64,000 bases of DNA from Thermoanaerobaculia bacterium (GTDB lineage Bacteria; Acidobacteriota; Thermoanaerobaculia; Gp7-AA8): NCBI GenBank assembly GCA_017883235.1, contig JADGNY010000012.1:18573-82572 (forward strand), in the 5' to 3' direction. Below are positions 4,327-64,000 of the stretch, piece by piece (position 1 is the first letter of the stretch; every line of letters begins with the position of its first letter). The notes below the pieces were generated by a model. That model made no database searches, was not told where the DNA came from, and saw nothing but the letters and a program-made list of their open reading frames with translations. Both the position numbers and the translations under genes were made by a program.

Positions 4327-7300
4327 ATGAGCGGAGACGCATTCATGGGTAACGAAAGCCATAGGGCCCGATTGGCCGTACTTCTGCTTGTGTTTGCGTC
4401 GTGCGCCCAGTCACCTGTGCCTGAGCGGTTGGCTGTAGAAGAGCCGACGATCATTGATCGAAGCCGGCCGCATCAGCAGATTGCGGAGCTTCCCGCGCTT
4501 GACGCGATGGCGGCCGTCGATGCTGTCTATCGCCTGCTGCCCGATCGGCGGGTGCTTCTCGCCGTGCGCGACATCTACGAGCTGCATACTGGACAGACGG
4601 CGAGCGTGGAGATCGATTTTCGCGGTGGCGGTTGGGAGCTTCATTGCGCCAACCGTCTGGTCGGACGCCTGACGGAATTGCCCCAGTTTGGAGAGGATCT
4701 GGCCTTGTTGTCGTCCTGGTCGCGCTCGCTCGCGCCGTCGCCGGCAACGCCCCCGCTTGCACCGGAAGTCAGCGCCGAGGCCGATCGACTGCAGGAGTCG
4801 TTTTCTCCGCCAGCCCTCATTGCTGCGATGCGGTCGCTCTCACGGGCGGCGGGCAGCGGGCCGCTCGGAGCGGACGTTCTGCGTCGCGCGGCTCGCGTTG
4901 CCGTCGATCTGAATATTCAGATGACGGACACCTACGGCGTTGGCGACGCCGTCTCGGCACGCGCACTCGCGCTCCTTGCGATGGCTCGCGAGGCTGATCC
5001 GCAATTTGGTGCTGAGGAAGCCTCGCTGTTCGCGGATGAAATGGGCTATGCAACCGAGGCGCGGGAGATGGCGCTGCGACTGCCGGCCGATGCCGTGACG
5101 CGCATCGCTACCGGTATCACGCCCGCTCGGGCAGACCTGTCGCCGGCGAGCGCGCGCCGCTCGTATCTTTCCGCGCGGCAACTCCTCATTCACGCCGGTG
5201 GTAACGAGCGCATTGAATCCGTCGCGCCATACCTGGGCCGATTGCACGCCCGGGCGTTGCCATTGCTGTTGCGGAAGAGCGATTTCGAGAATGCCGTCGC
5301 CGCCGCGCACTGCGTTGAGGCGCTTGTCGTCGATGACGTGACGGGCGCCGGGTTCACGGATCGCATCGTGACGTTCGGCGGGACCGCGGAGTGGTTGGCA
5401 GAGGCCCAGGCAACGATTCCGGCGGCGAGGAGTGCGCCCGGAGCGCTGGCCGCGCAATATGAGTCGGCCCGCGCCAGGTACGCACGCGGCGCGGCGTCAC
5501 GTCTTCTGGGAAGCGACGCCATTCTGAGTTTCTACGACGCTGTTTTCTATTCGGCCCTCGGCGCAGAGCTTGGCTTCTACAGTTCCAGTCTTGCCGACAG
5601 CAAAGCGACTAAAGATTTCGTCGGGTCGATCGGAACGACTACGTCTGAGCCGGGCAACGAGGTGCGATCGGCGATGCGCGCGGCTGCTGCCAATCATTTC
5701 GAAGGTGGCCGCGGTGTCGAGCCGCAGGCGATCATCGGCTGGAATCATCTCGGTGGTGCGATACGAGCGAATACGCTGCTGGATTTGACCTCGGCCCGTG
5801 GAATTGATCAAGGCGTTCGTAGTGCCGCGTTGACCTCGTTCGCGGCACTCGATGGGCGGCCGCAGCAGATGCTGAGCGCAGGCCGTGTCGCACTGGCGAT
5901 CACCTCGGATCCCTTACGGCGGGACCGCTACATGCGGACCGCCTTTCAACGTTCGCCGAGCGTCGCCGATGAGGGCGTTCGTGCGTGGTACTACTACCTG
6001 AGTGGCGACGTCGCGGCGTTGCGCCTGCTCGCCACACAGGAAAACGCACGCCGGGCCGATCGCGCCGTGGCCACGGACTATCTCGGGAAGCTCGGCGACG
6101 ATGCCTTCGCCGGCCGCAATTTCGAATCGTTGCTCGCCGAATCGTACGAATACGTCTATCCGATTTATGCGGGATGGCTGAATCGCCGTCAGGCGTGGGC
6201 AGCGAAAGAACGAGCGGTGCGCCGGTGGCTGGCCAGCCATGCCGGGCAAAACGCCATCGAAGACGCGTATTACACATCCAGCCTTGCCGACGCGCTGGAG
6301 CACCAGGGACGCTACGACGAAGCGTGGAAGATCGTGGAGCCGCTCATCGACGTCGGGAGCGCGAACATCATCGGAACGGCGGTTTCGCTGCTCCAACGCC
6401 GTGGCCAGATCGAGCGGGCCAATGCACTTGGACGGGCCATGATCGAGCGATACCCAAGTGCCTGGAGCCGTTCAGAATTTGCCGTAATCCTCTGGCGGGA
6501 GAAGCGCTGGCAGGAAGCAGCAGCGCTGTTCGATCCGAAAGTGGCGCGCTACTCGCGCTCGGAATGGACAGAACACGTGCCTGAGGACTTCGCAGACACG
6601 TTCGAAAAAAGCGATGCAGCTGCGGTCTCTTCCGCGATGGATGCATTCCTCGATGCCGGCATCGACCCTTCGGATCTGCTGGTGTCCATCCCCGAGGCTC
6701 TACGCAAACATGGCCGCGCCGATCTTGCCTTCGTTGCGGCGGAGCGTGCTTGTCTACGCCACCCTTTGACGCAGAAAGGTCCCGGCGCCGCCACCGAACA
6801 CGTGCTCGCCTACAAGATGCTCGCCGCGGCGAAAGGACCCGACGCGGCGATCGAATGGTTGCGGTCACGGACACCGGATGCCGCCGTTCTGCAACTGGTG
6901 GTGCAGATGTATCAGATGCGGCAGTACGCCGCTCTCTTTTCAGTAGCCAGTCCCAGGCCGGTGGCGGGGAAGAACATCGAACTACAGGTTTATCTCGCTG
7001 CGGCGCTGACGCAGTTGCGGGCTGCGCCGGATGATCCTCGGGTTGTGGCGTTGCGCCGCGAGGTCGCTGCCCAGCCGATTGATCCCAATTCGCTGCAGGG
7101 CATCACGCGCTACCTTCTGGGCATTAGCGACGAGAAGGCATTCATCGCCTGGGGACGATTGCCCAGCGGCCGCTATTCCGTCGAGTATTTCATCGGTCTC
7201 AAATCCGCGGCCGCAGGCGACTACGATCGGGCCCTGCGGGCGATCCTCGCTGCAACGTACGCCACGTACGGCTCGCCGCCGCAGGTTTGGGCGGACGGAA

Positions 7301-7374
7301 TGTTGAGGACATGGGGCTGGGGCGATCAACACGGCACGTGGCCTGAAGTGGCGCGGCGCACAGCAAACGAGTGA
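4327..7374 (+). CDS. TPR-like repeat lipoprotein, 1015 aa
   Basis: Lipoprotein signal LAVLLLVFASC; long alpha-helical repeat protein. Confidence 0.65.
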   Translation: MSGDAFMGNESHRARLAVLLLVFASCAQSPVPERLAVEEPTIIDRSRPHQQIAELPALDAMAAVDAVYRLLPDRRVLLAVRDIYELHTGQTASVEIDFRGGGWELHCANRLVGRLTELPQFGEDLALLSSWSRSLAPSPATPPLAPEVSAEADRLQESFSPPALIAAMRSLSRAAGSGPLGADVLRRAARVAVDLNIQMTDTYGVGDAVSARALALLAMAREADPQFGAEEASLFADEMGYATEAREMALRLPADAVTRIATGITPARADLSPASARRSYLSARQLLIHAGGNERIESVAPYLGRLHARALPLLLRKSDFENAVAAAHCVEALVVDDVTGAGFTDRIVTFGGTAEWLAEAQATIPAARSAPGALAAQYESARARYARGAASRLLGSDAILSFYDAVFYSALGAELGFYSSSLADSKATKDFVGSIGTTTSEPGNEVRSAMRAAAANHFEGGRGVEPQAIIGWNHLGGAIRANTLLDLTSARGIDQGVRSAALTSFAALDGRPQQMLSAGRVALAITSDPLRRDRYMRTAFQRSPSVADEGVRAWYYYLSGDVAALRLLATQENARRADRAVATDYLGKLGDDAFAGRNFESLLAESYEYVYPIYAGWLNRRQAWAAKERAVRRWLASHAGQNAIEDAYYTSSLADALEHQGRYDEAWKIVEPLIDVGSANIIGTAVSLLQRRGQIERANALGRAMIERYPSAWSRSEFAVILWREKRWQEAAALFDPKVARYSRSEWTEHVPEDFADTFEKSDAAAVSSAMDAFLDAGIDPSDLLVSIPEALRKHGRADLAFVAAERACLRHPLTQKGPGAATEHVLAYKMLAAAKGPDAAIEWLRSRTPDAAVLQLVVQMYQMRQYAALFSVASPRPVAGKNIELQVYLAAALTQLRAAPDDPRVVALRREVAAQPIDPNSLQGITRYLLGISDEKAFIAWGRLPSGRYSVEYFIGLKSAAAGDYDRALRAILAATYATYGSPPQVWADGMLRTWGWGDQHGTWPEVARRTANE

Positions 7375-7406
7375 TCCGGTCGTATCGCGTGTGCCGTGGT
7401 TCCTGG

Positions 7407-7617
7407 GCTCCGCATAGCAGAAAGTTAGCTCCGCATAGCAGAAAGTTAGCTCCGCAGAGCAGAAAGTTTGCTCCGCATAGCAGAAAGTTAGCTTCGCATA
7501 GCAGAAAGTTAGCTTCGCATAGCAGGAAGTTTGCTCCGCATAGCAGGAAGTCAGCTCCGTAGAGCAAAGGGTTTGATCCGCAGAATCAACGAGTTAGCTT
7601 TGCAGAGCAGAAGAACT
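7407..7617. repeat. tandem array A, 21-bp period (gctccgcatagcagaaagtta), 8 strong plus 2 degenerate units
   Basis: Units start at 7407, 7428, 7449, 7470, 7491, 7512, 7533, 7554, with decayed units at 7575 (22 bp) and 7597; no spacers. Confidence 0.95.
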
Positions 7618-7712
7618 GCTCTCGAGAAACGTGCAGGTTGTTTTCCGATGAGTCAAAGAACTGCTCTCGCGGGAATAAACGGCTGTCGATCCGAGAAGCG
7701 CCTGAGCTGCCC

Positions 7713-9101
7713 ATGCTGTCGCCAGGAAGCGTCGACGCCGACGGCGATTCCGGCTTAATCTTTCCCGAGGTGACTCTGAGACAACTACGCTGGCTGGCGA
7801 TCGCCGCACCGATGGTTGTCGTGGCGCTGCTCGAGCTCGCGCGCGTGACGACGATCGGGGTGACGTCGATCGGCAGCCGAATCGTGCTCGACGGGTTGGT
7901 CGCCGCCGCGCTGGTGATCGTGAGCACCTACATGGTGCGCGCCGTCGGACGGATGCAGCATCGCCTGGAGCGGCACAACGAAGAGCTGCTGGCGCTGCAC
8001 GGCGCGGGGCTCGACGTCACCGCCGAGCTTTCCCTCGACGTCGTCCTGAATAAGGTGGTCCAGCGGGCGCGGGCGCTGGTCGGGTCGCGGTATGGCGCGC
8101 TGTCGGTCGTCAACGCTGACGGCTCGATCCAGACCTTCATCACTGCAGGCGTCACACCCGAGGAACGCGCGCGCATCGGTCCGCCGCCGGTCGGTCATGG
8201 ACTGCTCGGCGTCGTTCTCAATGAAGGCGAACGCCTGCGGTTGCCCGACATCGGTAAGGACCCGCGGTCGCACGGTTTCCCGCCGAACCATCCGGTGATG
8301 CATTCGCTGCTCGCCGTTCCAATCACCTGCAAGGGACCGTTCGTGGGGAACCTTTACCTCACCGAAAAGGAAGGGGGCGGAGAGTTCACGCCGGGCGACG
8401 AAGAGACGCTGGGACGCTTCGCCGTGCAGGCCGCCATCGCCATCGACAACGCCCACCTCCATCGCCAGGTCGCCGATCTCGCGGTGGCGCAAGAGCGATT
8501 GCGCATCGCCCACGAGATGCACGACGGCATCGCCCAGGTTCTCGGATATGTGAACACGAAGGTCCAGGCGGCGATCGAGTATTTGCGCCGGGAGAAGACG
8601 GAGGAAGGGCTGGAGCAACTGCGCGAGCTTGCCGCCGCCGCGCGTGAGGCCTACGGCGACGTCCGGGAGGCCATCGTCGATCTGCGCACGCTTCCGGGAC
8701 CGGCGCGTGCCTTCGACGACGTGTTGCGCGAGTACGTCGACCGCTGGAAAGAGCAGGCCGGGGTCGACGCACGGCTGGTCATCGACGGAGACCTGGTCAT
8801 GCCCAACGGAATCGAGCTGCAGCTCGTCCGGATCATTCAGGAATCGCTTACCAACGTCCGCAAACATGCGAAAGCGACGATGGCGGCGATCGAAGTCCGC
8901 CGTCAAAACGGCAAGCTGCTCATCACCGTGAGCGATAACGGCGCCGGCTTTACCCAGGCCGGTCTCAGCCGGAGCGTGTTCCCCCGATTCGGCCTCTCGA
9001 CGATGCGCGAGCGCGCCGAATCGATCGGCGGCACCTTCTCCATCGAGAGCGCACCGGGCGGAGGGACTGTGGTGAATGTCGAGGTGCCGTTGCCGGGGTG
9101 A
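7713..9101 (+). CDS. GAF-domain sensor histidine kinase (NarL-class, HisKA_3/HATPase)
   Basis: GAF segment; RLRIAHEMHDGIAQVLGYVNTKVQA H-box; ESLTNVRKHAKAT and SDNGAGF ATPase motifs. An upstream start at 7638 lies within decayed repeat-like sequence. Confidence 0.88.
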   Translation: MLSPGSVDADGDSGLIFPEVTLRQLRWLAIAAPMVVVALLELARVTTIGVTSIGSRIVLDGLVAAALVIVSTYMVRAVGRMQHRLERHNEELLALHGAGLDVTAELSLDVVLNKVVQRARALVGSRYGALSVVNADGSIQTFITAGVTPEERARIGPPPVGHGLLGVVLNEGERLRLPDIGKDPRSHGFPPNHPVMHSLLAVPITCKGPFVGNLYLTEKEGGGEFTPGDEETLGRFAVQAAIAIDNAHLHRQVADLAVAQERLRIAHEMHDGIAQVLGYVNTKVQAAIEYLRREKTEEGLEQLRELAAAAREAYGDVREAIVDLRTLPGPARAFDDVLREYVDRWKEQAGVDARLVIDGDLVMPNGIELQLVRIIQESLTNVRKHAKATMAAIEVRRQNGKLLITVSDNGAGFTQAGLSRSVFPRFGLSTMRERAESIGGTFSIESAPGGGTVVNVEVPLPG

Positions 9102-9241: not shown

Positions 9242-9898
9242 GTGCGCATTCTCATCGCCGATGATCACGCCCTCTTTCGGGATGGCCTTCGCAGTCTGCT
9301 GCAGTCGCAGGGGCATGAAGTCGTCGGTGAGGCGCCGAACGGGAAAGCGGCGGTCGAGCTGGCGACGAGGCTTCGTCCCGATCTCGTCCTGATGGACATC
9401 TCCATGCCCGAGCTCGACGGCGTTGCCGCGACGAAGGAGTTGACGGCGCACTTGCCCGACGTCAAGGTCGTCATCCTGACGGCATCGGAGCACAGCGAGA
9501 CGCTCTTCGACGCCATCAAAGCGGGAGCGCAGGGCTATCTGCTCAAGAACCTCGAGGCCGAGGAGTTCTTTGCGCTGCTCGAGCGCGCCGGCCACGGCGA
9601 GCCGGCGCTGACACCGGCACTCGCGCGCAAGCTCCTGCAGGAGTTTGCGAAACCTGTTGCACACGAGAGCGCGTCCAACGTCCCGGACTCACTCACCGAT
9701 CGCGAACGCGAAGTCCTCGAGCTGATGGTCGAAGGCGTCACCGCGAACCGCAAGATGGCCAAGCGCCTCGGCGTCAGCGAGAACACGGTGAAGTTCCACG
9801 TCCGCAACATCCTCGACAAGCTGAGGCTCAACAACCGCGCCCAGGCCGTCGGCTACGCCATGCGGCACAACATCGTCGACCGGGAAGGCGGAACGTAG
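9242..9898 (+). CDS. NarL/FixJ (LuxR-type) response regulator
   Basis: MRILIADDHALFRDGL receiver and LTDREREVLELMVEGVTANRKMAKRLGVSENTVKFHVRNILDKL HTH; GTG start. Confidence 0.93.
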   Translation: MRILIADDHALFRDGLRSLLQSQGHEVVGEAPNGKAAVELATRLRPDLVLMDISMPELDGVAATKELTAHLPDVKVVILTASEHSETLFDAIKAGAQGYLLKNLEAEEFFALLERAGHGEPALTPALARKLLQEFAKPVAHESASNVPDSLTDREREVLELMVEGVTANRKMAKRLGVSENTVKFHVRNILDKLRLNNRAQAVGYAMRHNIVDREGGT

Positions 9899-11107: not shown

Positions 11108-11265
11108 AGGTGCCGCCTACGCGTGGCGGCTTGCCGGCCTAATCCTCGGCGCCGAGGAACGGGGGAACCAATTGAGCGACGGCTTGCCACCGTCCGGGGT
11201 GAATCCAGCCAGAAGCTGGTAGGGCTTCCAGTCCGAATCCGACAGCTAACCTCGTAGGCAGCCGG
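11108..11265 (+). ncRNA. c-di-AMP (ydaO/yuaA-type) riboswitch
   Basis: Recognisable consensus blocks gccgaggaacgggggaaccaa, ggggtgaatcc, gtagggctt, ccgaatccgacagctaacctcgtaggc; tgccgcctacg can pair with cgtaggca as P1. Confidence 0.85.
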
Positions 11266-11277
11266 AAGGCAGGCCTC

Positions 11278-11578: not shown

Positions 11579-14500
11579 ATGCAACGATACTCATCCCTCG
11601 GGTTTCGAGCGGCCACGATCGCCGCGATGGTGCTTATCGCCTTACTTGCCGTAAGCGCATATGCACAGATTCAATCGGGAAACATCTACGGCAAGGCACA
11701 GGCCAAGGACGGATCAGCGCTTCCGGGCGTGACCGTAACTTTGACCGGCGTCGGCGCACCGCAGACGGTGGTTACCGACGCAGCGGGCAACTTCCGATTC
11801 CTCAATCTCTCGCCTGGGTCGTACGGACTCAAGGCGGAGCTGGCGGGATTCGGAACGTCGACCCGTACGGGCATCACCGTCAACCTCGGACGTAACGCCG
11901 ACGTGACGATGACGCTCAATCCGTCGGCGGCGGAATCGATCGTCGTCACGGCTGAAGCGCCGCTGCTCGACGTTCGCAAGACCGGCACGGGCGCCGACAT
12001 CTCCAAGGTCGAGCTCGAGAATGTGCCGTCGGCGCGCGACCCGTGGGTCATCCTCCAGCAGACCCCCGGCGTCACGATCGACCGCAACAACGTCGGCGGA
12101 AACGAGTCCGGCCAGCAGTCGGTCTACGCATCGAAGGGTACCCAGGGCACGCAGTCGACCTGGAACGTCGATGGTGTGAACATCACCGACTTCGCCGCGA
12201 CCGGCTCCTCGCCGTCGTATTACGACTTCGACGCCTTCGAAGAAATGCAGATCACGACCGGCGGCACCGACCCGCGCATCATGACCCCGGGTGTGCAGCT
12301 CAACATGGTCACCAAGCGCGGAACGAATGACTTCAAGGGCTCGGCTCACGGATTCCATACCAGCCAGAGCTATCAGGCCACTCCGCAGATCCCGGCGGAA
12401 GCGACGAGCTACCTGGCCGCCATCAATCAGATCGACAAAATCAATGACGACGGCGGCGAAATCGGCGGCCCGATCATCAAGGACCGTCTCTGGTTCTGGG
12501 GCGCGTACGGGAAACAGGACATCAACATCCTGACGGCTACGCTCCTCAATCCCAAAGACCCGACTTCGCGGTTCCACGACACGACCCAGCTCAAGAACGA
12601 AAACCTGAAGGTCAACGCGCAGCCCACTGCCTCGAACAGCCTGACGCTGGTCGATCAGTACGGCGCGAAGATCAAATTCGGACGGAACGTCAGCACCACG
12701 CGTTTCCCGGAGACCAGCTGGAACCAGAACGACACGTACGCCAAGGGCACCGGCAGCCTCACCGATCCGACCCTCTGGAAGATCGAAGATACGCAGATCA
12801 TCAATCAGAACCTCTACCTCACCGGTCTCTACTCGAAGGTGCAGGGCGGCTTTCAGCTCATCGCCGACAACGGCAAGGGCTGCGCGACTTTCGCGTGCGG
12901 CATCGACTCCCTTCCGGCCTTTCGCGACAAAACTGTCGGCGGCGACGGTGCATGGCACCGCTCCTTCTATTCGGTCACGAGCCTGCGCCCGCAGAAGCAG
13001 ACCCGCCTGGACGGTTCCGCGTTCGTCAACACCGGGAAGTTCAGCCATGAGCTGAAGTTCGGTTACGGTTATCGCGTTGCGGACGTGACCTCGCGCACCG
13101 CGTGGCCGGGTGGTGAATATACCTATAACTACGGCACCGGCTTTGGCGATGGTCATGACACAGGCCTGGTGGCTTTCCCGCGCTTCCCGAGCCTTACCTA
13201 CTCTTCCAAATCGACCGATATGTATGTCGGCGACACGATCATGCTCGGCAACCTTACGCTGCAAGGAGCTCTTCGCTACGACCAGCAGAAGGGCGTCGTC
13301 TCCGCCGGAACCGCCGCAGCCAATCCCGTCGTTCCTGAGCTTCTCCCGGCCGAGACGTTCTCAGGCGAGTCGGGTCTGAAGTTCAACAACATCTCTCCGC
13401 GTCTCGGTCTGACCTATGCGTTGGGTGCCGATCGCAAGACTCTGCTGCGAGCGTCGTACAGCCGGTACGTCAGTCAGTTGACCAGCAATGCCGTGAACCC
13501 GGTATCCCCCGGCGCGACGTCGTACATTTACTACTACTACAATGATCTGAACCACAACAACGCCGCGGAACGGAACGAGATCGACTTCGCCTACGGCAAC
13601 ATCGGCCACTCAGGATTTGACCCCACCCATCCGACCCTTTCGACGCAGTTCACGCGTTGGGCGAGCAATCTCAAGGCCCCGTACACCGACGAGATCATCC
13701 TCGGCGGCGAGCGCGAGCTGATGAGCGACTTCAGCGTCGGCATCAACGGCACGTATCGCAAACTCGATAACTTCATCAGCACCGTCGGCGAGCACACGCA
13801 GGGCGCGGGCGACTTCTACAGCCCGTCCGACTATGTTCTTCACGCACCCGTCACCGCCACGCTGCCGAACGGCTCGACGGTGTCACTCCCGTACTACCAG
13901 TTGAAGCCCGGCGTTTCGGTTCCCGTCTTCAGCGTCATTCGCAACACGCCGGACTACTACCAGACTTACAAGGGACTCGAGTTCACCGCGACCAAGCGGC
14001 TGTCGCATCGCTGGATGATGCGCGGGAACCTCACCCTGCAGGACTGGAAGCAGCACGTCGGTCCCGGCGCGATCGTCGATCCGACAGTTACGCGCACATG
14101 CGGCGTCTGCAACAATTCCGAGGTCATCTTCCAGAGCACCGGCAGCGGAGCGAAGGGCAACGTCTACATCAACTCGAAGTGGACTGCTGACCTGACTGGC
14201 ACGTATCAGATCCCCGTCATCGAGACGTCGTTCGGATTCAACGTCAACTCCCGTCAGGGCTACTCACTGCCGTATGTGTTTCTCGTGAAAGGCGCTCCGG
14301 GCTCTGGTGAGGGCAACAAGTCCCTTCTGGCGCCGAGCGCCGTCGACACCTTCAGGGACCCCACGGTCACTGAAGTTGACCTGCGCATTGCCAAAGAGAT
14401 TCGCTTCCAGAGGGTCGGCCTGACGCTCTCGCTCGATGGATTCAACATGTTGAACTCCAACACCATCCTGCAGCGCAACGTGGCACAGCTCAACTCGTCT

Positions 14501-14593
14501 GCCAGCAACGCGAATCCGTCTTCGACCAGCAACCGCATCGCAGAAGTTCTCTCGCCGCGTGTGTTCCGCCTCGGCGCGCGTCTGTCGTTCTAG
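11579..14593 (+). CDS. TonB-dependent receptor with carboxypeptidase regulatory-like domain (Oar-like)
   Basis: GSALPGVTVTLTGVGAPQTVVTDAAGNFRFLNLSPGSYGLKAELAGF, plug-like TWNVDGVNITD, C-terminal FRLGARLSF. Confidence 0.92.
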   Translation: MQRYSSLGFRAATIAAMVLIALLAVSAYAQIQSGNIYGKAQAKDGSALPGVTVTLTGVGAPQTVVTDAAGNFRFLNLSPGSYGLKAELAGFGTSTRTGITVNLGRNADVTMTLNPSAAESIVVTAEAPLLDVRKTGTGADISKVELENVPSARDPWVILQQTPGVTIDRNNVGGNESGQQSVYASKGTQGTQSTWNVDGVNITDFAATGSSPSYYDFDAFEEMQITTGGTDPRIMTPGVQLNMVTKRGTNDFKGSAHGFHTSQSYQATPQIPAEATSYLAAINQIDKINDDGGEIGGPIIKDRLWFWGAYGKQDINILTATLLNPKDPTSRFHDTTQLKNENLKVNAQPTASNSLTLVDQYGAKIKFGRNVSTTRFPETSWNQNDTYAKGTGSLTDPTLWKIEDTQIINQNLYLTGLYSKVQGGFQLIADNGKGCATFACGIDSLPAFRDKTVGGDGAWHRSFYSVTSLRPQKQTRLDGSAFVNTGKFSHELKFGYGYRVADVTSRTAWPGGEYTYNYGTGFGDGHDTGLVAFPRFPSLTYSSKSTDMYVGDTIMLGNLTLQGALRYDQQKGVVSAGTAAANPVVPELLPAETFSGESGLKFNNISPRLGLTYALGADRKTLLRASYSRYVSQLTSNAVNPVSPGATSYIYYYYNDLNHNNAAERNEIDFAYGNIGHSGFDPTHPTLSTQFTRWASNLKAPYTDEIILGGERELMSDFSVGINGTYRKLDNFISTVGEHTQGAGDFYSPSDYVLHAPVTATLPNGSTVSLPYYQLKPGVSVPVFSVIRNTPDYYQTYKGLEFTATKRLSHRWMMRGNLTLQDWKQHVGPGAIVDPTVTRTCGVCNNSEVIFQSTGSGAKGNVYINSKWTADLTGTYQIPVIETSFGFNVNSRQGYSLPYVFLVKGAPGSGEGNKSLLAPSAVDTFRDPTVTEVDLRIAKEIRFQRVGLTLSLDGFNMLNSNTILQRNVAQLNSSASNANPSSTSNRIAEVLSPRVFRLGARLSF

Positions 14594-29061: not shown

Positions 29062-29456
29062 GAAGCGATCGTCAAAACGAAGCAAGTGATCGACGAAATG
29101 AAGCAAGCGATCGTCGAAGTGAAGCAAGCGATCGACGAAATGAAGCGCGCCAGGGTCAAAACGAAGCGCGCGAGGGTCAAAACGAAGCACGCGAGGGTCA
29201 AAACGAAGCGCGCGAGGGTGAAAACGAAGCACGCGAGGGTGAAAACGAAGCACGCGAGGGTGAAAACGAAGCACGCGAGGGTGAAAATGAAGCGCGCGAG
29301 GGTGAAAACGAAGCACGCGAGGGTGAAAACGAAGCGCGCGAGGGTGAAAACGAAGCGCGCGAGGGTGAAAACGAAGCGCGCGAGGGTGAAAACGAAGCAC
29401 GCGAGGGTGAAAACGAAGCGCGCGAGGGTCGAAATGAAGCTCGCGAGGGCCGAATG
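29062..29456. repeat. tandem array B, 21-bp period (gaagc[g/a]cgcgagggtgaaaac), 18 full units plus one 17-bp unit
   Basis: 17-bp partial unit at 29062, then full units every 21 bp from 29079 to 29436; units at 29079-29141 belong to a divergent sub-family (gaagcaagcgatcgacgaaat). Confidence 0.95.
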
Positions 29457-63815: not shown

Positions 63816-63902
63816 CGGGACGGTCACGACTTCTATCGCTTCCGGAGAGATCGTTAACGTGCCGGAATCGACCCTGACTTACGCAAGTCCAGGATTGCCG
63901 AT

Positions 63903-64000
63903 GTGGGGCCTCGGCCTGACGCCGTCGAGCCTCGGCCTGAATTTGTGGGGCCTCGGCCTGACGCCGTCGAGCCTCGGCCTGAATTTGTGGGGCCTCGGCC
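63903..64000. repeat. tandem array C, 21-bp period with two alternating unit types (42-bp higher order), running off the window
   Basis: gtggggcctcggcctgacgcc / gtcgagcctcggcctgaattt alternating at 63903, 63924, 63945, 63966, 63987. Confidence 0.93.

What the first reader, a model, noticed from the sequence alone, without database searches (positions are those of the whole stretch)
7407..7617. Array A: 21-bp tandem repeat between a TPR lipoprotein and a histidine kinase
Eight nearly identical, contiguous 21-bp units (gctccgcatagcagaaagtta) followed by two decayed units fill the gap between the stop at 7374 and the GAF histidine kinase start. Units decay toward the kinase. Because 21 is a multiple of 3, several frames stay open (heptads such as LLCGANF or APHSRKL), but no frame looks like a genuine protein. 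21 bp is close to two B-DNA helical turns, so each unit would present the same helix face, which fits an ordered protein-binding or bending array.
Basis: partly seen in the sequence, partly recalled or inferred. Interest (0 to 1): 0.7.

Follow-up and report, generated by a model that had tools for sequence, protein, structure and literature searches.

The report
Mobile-like element carrying 21-bp repeats
The 21-bp repeat array is real, but it is one worn copy of a species-specific, non-coding DNA element that lies between genes at about seven places in this soil acidobacterium and grows or shrinks in 21-bp steps, rather than a control site built for the neighbouring kinase.

Summary
The array is real: eight head-to-tail 21-bp units at 7407-7574 plus degenerate units, non-coding, between a TPR gene and a histidine kinase. 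But it is not local. The same unit forms arrays at seven loci of this genome and in none of 150 other genomes of its class (Thermoanaerobaculia, Acidobacteriota).

The array is the core of a dispersed element. Copies share a tail (window about 7575-7690), a short left end at some loci, and GNGGGAATAAANG, which occurs six times in 6.9 Mb, always at these loci. One copy (contig C228) is a 460-bp insertion bracketed by a perfect 43-bp direct repeat; a sister species has the empty site, with the two genes overlapping tail to tail. A second 21/22-bp module is single-copy in the window and at C228 but repeated about 21 times at C130, so modules are amplified inside the element.

More widely, 21 bp dominates non-coding tandem repeats in this genome and recurs, with other units, in related genomes; positions are not conserved. 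Best reading: a minisatellite-bearing non-autonomous element, like BrickBuilt of Porphyromonas but without terminal inverted repeats and with long target duplications. A kinase-specific protein-binding array is not supported.

The parts
7398..7406 (+). Possible truncated left end of the element (GGTTCCTGG), compared with GGTTCTTGAAGAG...CCGG at C5 and GTTCTTGAAGAG...CCGG at C228
   Evidence: Comparison by eye of the left junctions; weak. The full left end occurs only at C5 and C228
7407..7574 (+). Eight 21-bp family-A units, consensus GCTCCGCATAGCAGAAAGTTA; six of eight carry the T that breaks the GCTC/GAGC dyad seen at other loci
7575..7596 (+). Single module GATCCGCAGAATCAACGAGTTA, the counterpart of the module that is repeated about 21 times at C130a
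7597..7690 (+). Element tail made of degenerate 21-23-bp modules, shared with C130a, C55 and C228
   Evidence: (window 7572-7740 matches C130a at 76%)
7669..7681 (+). Motif GCGGGAATAAACG; the pattern GNGGGAATAAANG occurs six times in the genome, only at family-A loci
4417..7374 (+). TPR-type lipoprotein gene upstream; not next to the kinase in relatives
7713..9101 (+). GAF histidine kinase gene downstream (homology begins near 7770); its response regulator at 9242-9898 is conserved with it in relatives

Best explanation
Array A is a decayed copy of a species-specific, non-coding, non-autonomous dispersed element whose body is a minisatellite. The element has a short left end, a run of 21-bp units, sometimes a second run of 21/22-bp modules, and a conserved tail with a GGGAATAAA motif. 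Shown: copies share arrays, junctions and tails, and one copy is an insertion with a 43-bp target duplication into a site that is still empty in a sister species. Shown: a module that is single in some copies is a long array in others, so arrays grow inside the element. Inferred: growth and shrinkage occur by replication slippage or unequal recombination, helped in many arrays by small dyads that can fold in single-stranded DNA. Inferred: insertion happens at a widely staggered break, by an enzyme or repair route not identified here. Inferred: the window copy arrived the same way, and any effect on the kinase is incidental.
For: Same unit at seven loci, species-restricted. Shared tail (C130a-C55 96% over 180 bp, C130a-C228 84% over 134 bp, C130a-window 76%), shared left end, shared left flank of a second subtype. 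GNGGGAATAAANG six times in 6.9 Mb, all at family-A loci. 43-bp perfect direct repeat round the 460-bp C228 insert and 25-bp 92% repeat at C101, against 0 of 144 control intergenic sites. Empty site in sister G001, where both genes end in a single copy of the duplicated sequence. Module amplification from 1 copy (window, C228) to about 21 (C130a). Not coding. Array absent from orthologous places.
Against: No target duplication or empty site was found for the window copy itself. No terminal inverted repeats and no autonomous partner were found. Only one copy has a perfect target duplication. The two subtypes share different flanks, so the full element is not defined. Draft assembly: array lengths may be wrong and C5/C55 break inside an array.
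Confidence: 0.78

Rival explanations
1. Purely local slippage: independent minisatellites that arose in place, with no mobile element.
For: The genome has many unrelated 21-bp arrays, so in-place birth probably occurs; the second array at C130a grew from one module.
Against: Does not explain shared tails, shared junctions, a genome-unique motif at all family-A loci, or an insertion with target duplication.
Confidence: 0.06
2. A DNA-level protein-binding or bending array (nucleoid, partition or operator type) in which 21-bp spacing presents each unit on the same helix face.
For: Period 21 dominates across unrelated units; dyads are enriched on both strands alike, as for dimer-binding DNA sites; arrays are intergenic.
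Against: Units share no sequence between families or species; positions are not conserved; in array A the dyad-breaking change spread to 6 of 8 units; some 21-bp families have no dyad.
Confidence: 0.1
3. A transcribed structured RNA: a chain of small hairpins that acts as an RNA element of neighbouring genes.
For: Minus strand of array A folds better than shuffles (z -4.3), and the C130a array much better (z -16); though any array of palindromic units does so.
Against: Plus strand of array A does not (DNA parameters, z 0.55); no Rfam family (the sub-threshold miRNA matches reflect palindromic repeats); no gene-orientation preference of arrays; no promoter or terminator match.
Confidence: 0.05
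4. A heptad-repeat protein is encoded through the array.
For: 21 is a multiple of 3 and a 122-aa reverse ORF runs through the array.
Against: Coding score negative in all frames; every frame of the three element copies tested has at least one stop; 10-bp and 22-bp units and 43-bp periods elsewhere shift the frame.
Confidence: 0.01

Closest known systems
BrickBuilt and 464/PgRS elements of Porphyromonas gingivalis (PMC4596501)
   Same: Intergenic, species-specific, dispersed non-autonomous element made of a leader, a minisatellite (23 nt in BrickBuilt, 41 nt in PgRS) without spacers, and a tail; many copies lack one end.
   Different: No terminal inverted repeats found here; target duplications are 43 and about 25 bp instead of a few bases; a second array can grow inside the element; many other arrays of the same genome have the same 21-bp period with unrelated units. 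No sequence relation was tested.
REP elements (GTAG and CGTC families, RAYT-associated; PMC3733652)
   Same: Short palindromic intergenic units, dispersed, sometimes clustered; Y1 transposases (PF01797) are present in this genome.
   Different: Units lie head to tail without spacers, the GTAG or CGTC tag is not a feature of the unit, and the Y1 transposase loci do not carry family-A units.
Intergenic heptamer repeats (PMC6344855) and variable intergenic tandem repeats of Planctomycetota (PMC9426551)
   Same: Non-coding tandem repeats widespread in intergenic DNA of bacterial genomes.
   Different: Period 21 with no 7-bp substructure in the units, and element-like ends in this family.

Membership tests
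[quoted passage not shown]
   No inverted repeat between the ends of the C228 (460 bp) or C101 (620 bp) inserts beyond 9 of 15 matches
[quoted passage not shown]
   43-bp perfect repeat at C228 with an empty site in G001; 25 bp at 92% at C101. Much longer than usual for MITEs, and not visible at the window
[quoted passage not shown]
   Seven loci, roughly 300-1000 bp, non-coding
[quoted passage not shown]
   No transposon survey with the element ends was made
REP element (GTAG or CGTC) | Palindrome with a GTAG or CGTC tag at one end | tested here: not met
   Unit consensus GCTCCGCAGAGCAGAAAGTTA carries neither tag (definition from PMC3733652)
REP element (GTAG or CGTC) | Copies flanking a RAYT gene | tested here: not met
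   No family-A unit within about 1.5 kb of the nine Y1_Tnp matches
Known structured RNA (Rfam 15) | Match above a family's gathering score | tested here: not met
Protein-coding heptad repeat | Open frame with coding statistics kept across copies | tested here: not met

The most novel reading that the evidence does not exclude
This acidobacterial family has a sequence-independent process (an enzyme, or a replication or repair quirk) that multiplies intergenic DNA in steps of two helical turns, creating many unrelated 21-bp arrays; family A is such an array that also moves, by insertion with long staggered target duplications.
Probability: 0.17. Interest if true: 0.78.

Novelty: new variant of a known kind. 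Interest (0 to 1): 0.52.

Why it matters
A minisatellite inside a mobile-like element is known from Porphyromonas, so the architecture is not unheard of. What appears new is an insertion with a 43-bp duplication and an empty site in a sister species, the direct view of one 21/22-bp module being single in one element copy and a long array in another, and a genus-level preference for 21 bp across unrelated sequences. It makes the question why bacterial intergenic repeats favour certain lengths testable, and it warns against reading a lone tandem array between two genes as a regulatory site.

Tried and rejected
Regulatory element of the kinase: relatives keep the kinase-regulator pair without the array. 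Coding heptad protein: rejected. Known RNA family: none. REP/RAYT: tag and neighbourhood not met. Expanded heptamers (3 x 7): no lag-7 signal inside units. Viral or plasmid origin: no exact match of a two-unit pattern in the viral contigs and no similar stretch in 72,556 plasmid records. A general array-associated motif GGNAATAA in the sister species: suggestive only; the own-genome form GNGGGAATAAANG is absent there. Literature searches found no description of 21-bp arrays in Acidobacteria in the open library, which is not proof of absence.

Full report
WHAT IS THERE. The array is as described: eight 21-bp units from 7407 to 7574, then degenerate units. The genome is an acidobacterial draft (246 contigs, 6.92 Mb). 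By similarity of the kinase, its relatives are Thermoanaerobaculia / group 7 Acidobacteria.

IT IS A DISPERSED FAMILY. The unit recurs as arrays on C5, C130 (twice, one being the window), C228, C243, C101 and C118. A two-unit pattern has 53 matches in this genome and none in 150 other genomes of the class, sister species included. At other loci the unit usually keeps a dyad (GCTC-CGCA-GAGC, or the perfect palindrome GCTCCGCGGAGC). In array A six of the eight units (1, 2, 4-7) carry a T that breaks it, so the change spread by homogenisation and the dyad was evidently not needed for that.

THE ELEMENT AROUND THE ARRAY. Four copies share a tail: C130a and C228 are 84% identical over 134 bp; C130a and C55 96% over 180 bp, and C130a and the window 76% over window 7572-7740. 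C5 and C55 both end inside the second array and are probably the two sides of one locus. C5 and C228 share the left end GTTCTTGAAGAGNCCCNCGCCG, found nowhere else in the genome. A second subtype (C101, C243, C118) instead shares about 80-100 bp on the left. GNGGGAATAAANG occurs six times in the genome, always in one of these shared flanks, and GGGAATAA is absent from 100 kb of other non-coding DNA.

INSERTION. At C228 the 460 bp at L011 5270-5729 lie between two perfect copies of a 43-bp sequence. That sequence holds the 3' ends of two convergent genes. In sister genome G001 the same two genes end in one copy of it, overlapping tail to tail, with matching C-termini. So the element inserted, the target was duplicated, and both genes kept their ends. 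C101 has a 25-bp repeat (92%) in the corresponding place; 0 of 144 random intergenic sites had such repeats. No terminal inverted repeats were found. For the window copy no target duplication is visible, so its insertion is inferred from its siblings.

ARRAYS GROW INSIDE THE ELEMENT. The TTTGATCCGCAGA-type module next to the family-A run is present once in the window and at C228 but forms a 10.6 x 43-bp array (about 21 modules) at C130a and at least 9.3 x 43 bp at C5. C5 and C130a share the same truncated 10-bp unit just before the junction of the two arrays, so they descend from one composite copy; their family-A runs now differ (5.5 and 14.5 units).

THE WIDER 21-BP PHENOMENON. In 680 kb of this genome, 20 of 37 non-coding arrays (TRF score at least 80) have period exactly 21 and six others 22, 42 or 43. 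Six of the sampled regions were picked because they hold family A, so this proportion is inflated. In the unselected sample of sister G001, 5 of 19 have 21, 3 have 22 and 2 have 42 or 43, with different units; G009 of the same family also has 21-bp arrays. Lag 21 is the top autocorrelation peak of raw non-coding DNA in all three. G010, G012 and the sampled genomes of other families gave few or none, in small samples. About 82% of the genome is coding, yet almost all such arrays are intergenic, without clear preference for gene orientation. Across 31 unit families folding beyond shuffled units is enriched (Stouffer z -7.9 and -8.5 for the two strands; the shuffles keep only base composition), but several families show none, so the dyad is common and not universal. 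None of the orthologous neighbourhoods examined in G001 and G002 carries a 21-bp array of three or more copies. Why 21 is favoured is not explained here; two helical turns is the obvious suggestion and remains inference.

MECHANISM. Shown: dispersal of a composite element, one clean insertion, array growth inside the element, rapid turnover between species. Inferred: slippage or unequal recombination as the growth process, a staggered-break insertion route, and no specific role for the kinase. A role as RNA or as a protein-binding array is not excluded, but nothing specific supports it.

PLACE AMONG KNOWN THINGS. The nearest described case is BrickBuilt of Porphyromonas gingivalis, a MITE built round a 23-nt minisatellite with leader and tail (PMC4596501). 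The present element works like it, but fails the terminal-inverted-repeat test and has far longer target duplications. I therefore file it as a new variant of minisatellite-bearing non-autonomous elements and not as a MITE.

Noticed in passing
window 29063-29449: A second 21-bp array family (AAACGAAGCGCGCGAGGGTGA, about 15 copies, no dyad) between two minus-strand genes; a near-identical unit forms another array on contig C26 (L075 5474-5548), so it too is dispersed. The orthologous gene pair in G002 has no array.
   Followed up: partly
window 63902-64000: A 42/21-bp array runs to the very end of the contig; several contigs of this draft end inside such arrays (C5, C55, C6, C9), so arrays probably break the assembly.
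   Followed up: partly
window 11126-11273: A c-di-AMP riboswitch (RF00379, 74 bits) about 300 bp upstream of a TonB-dependent receptor-like gene with a carboxypeptidase regulatory domain (11579-14593).
   Followed up: no
own genome and G001 samples: Period-7 repeats are the commonest TRF class at the low score threshold in both genomes (30 and 27 arrays).
   Followed up: no
L094 233-252 and 783-802; L093 left of 9123 (G001): In the sister species a 20-bp sequence GGGCGGTAATAAGTCGGAAT stands next to three arrays of one unit family; it resembles GGGAATAAA of family A and may be an analogous element end.
   Followed up: partly
L193 1-162 and L194 354-539: Two of nine Y1-type transposase matches lie within 1.5 kb of a 20-21-bp array; about what chance would give at this array density.
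   Followed up: partly
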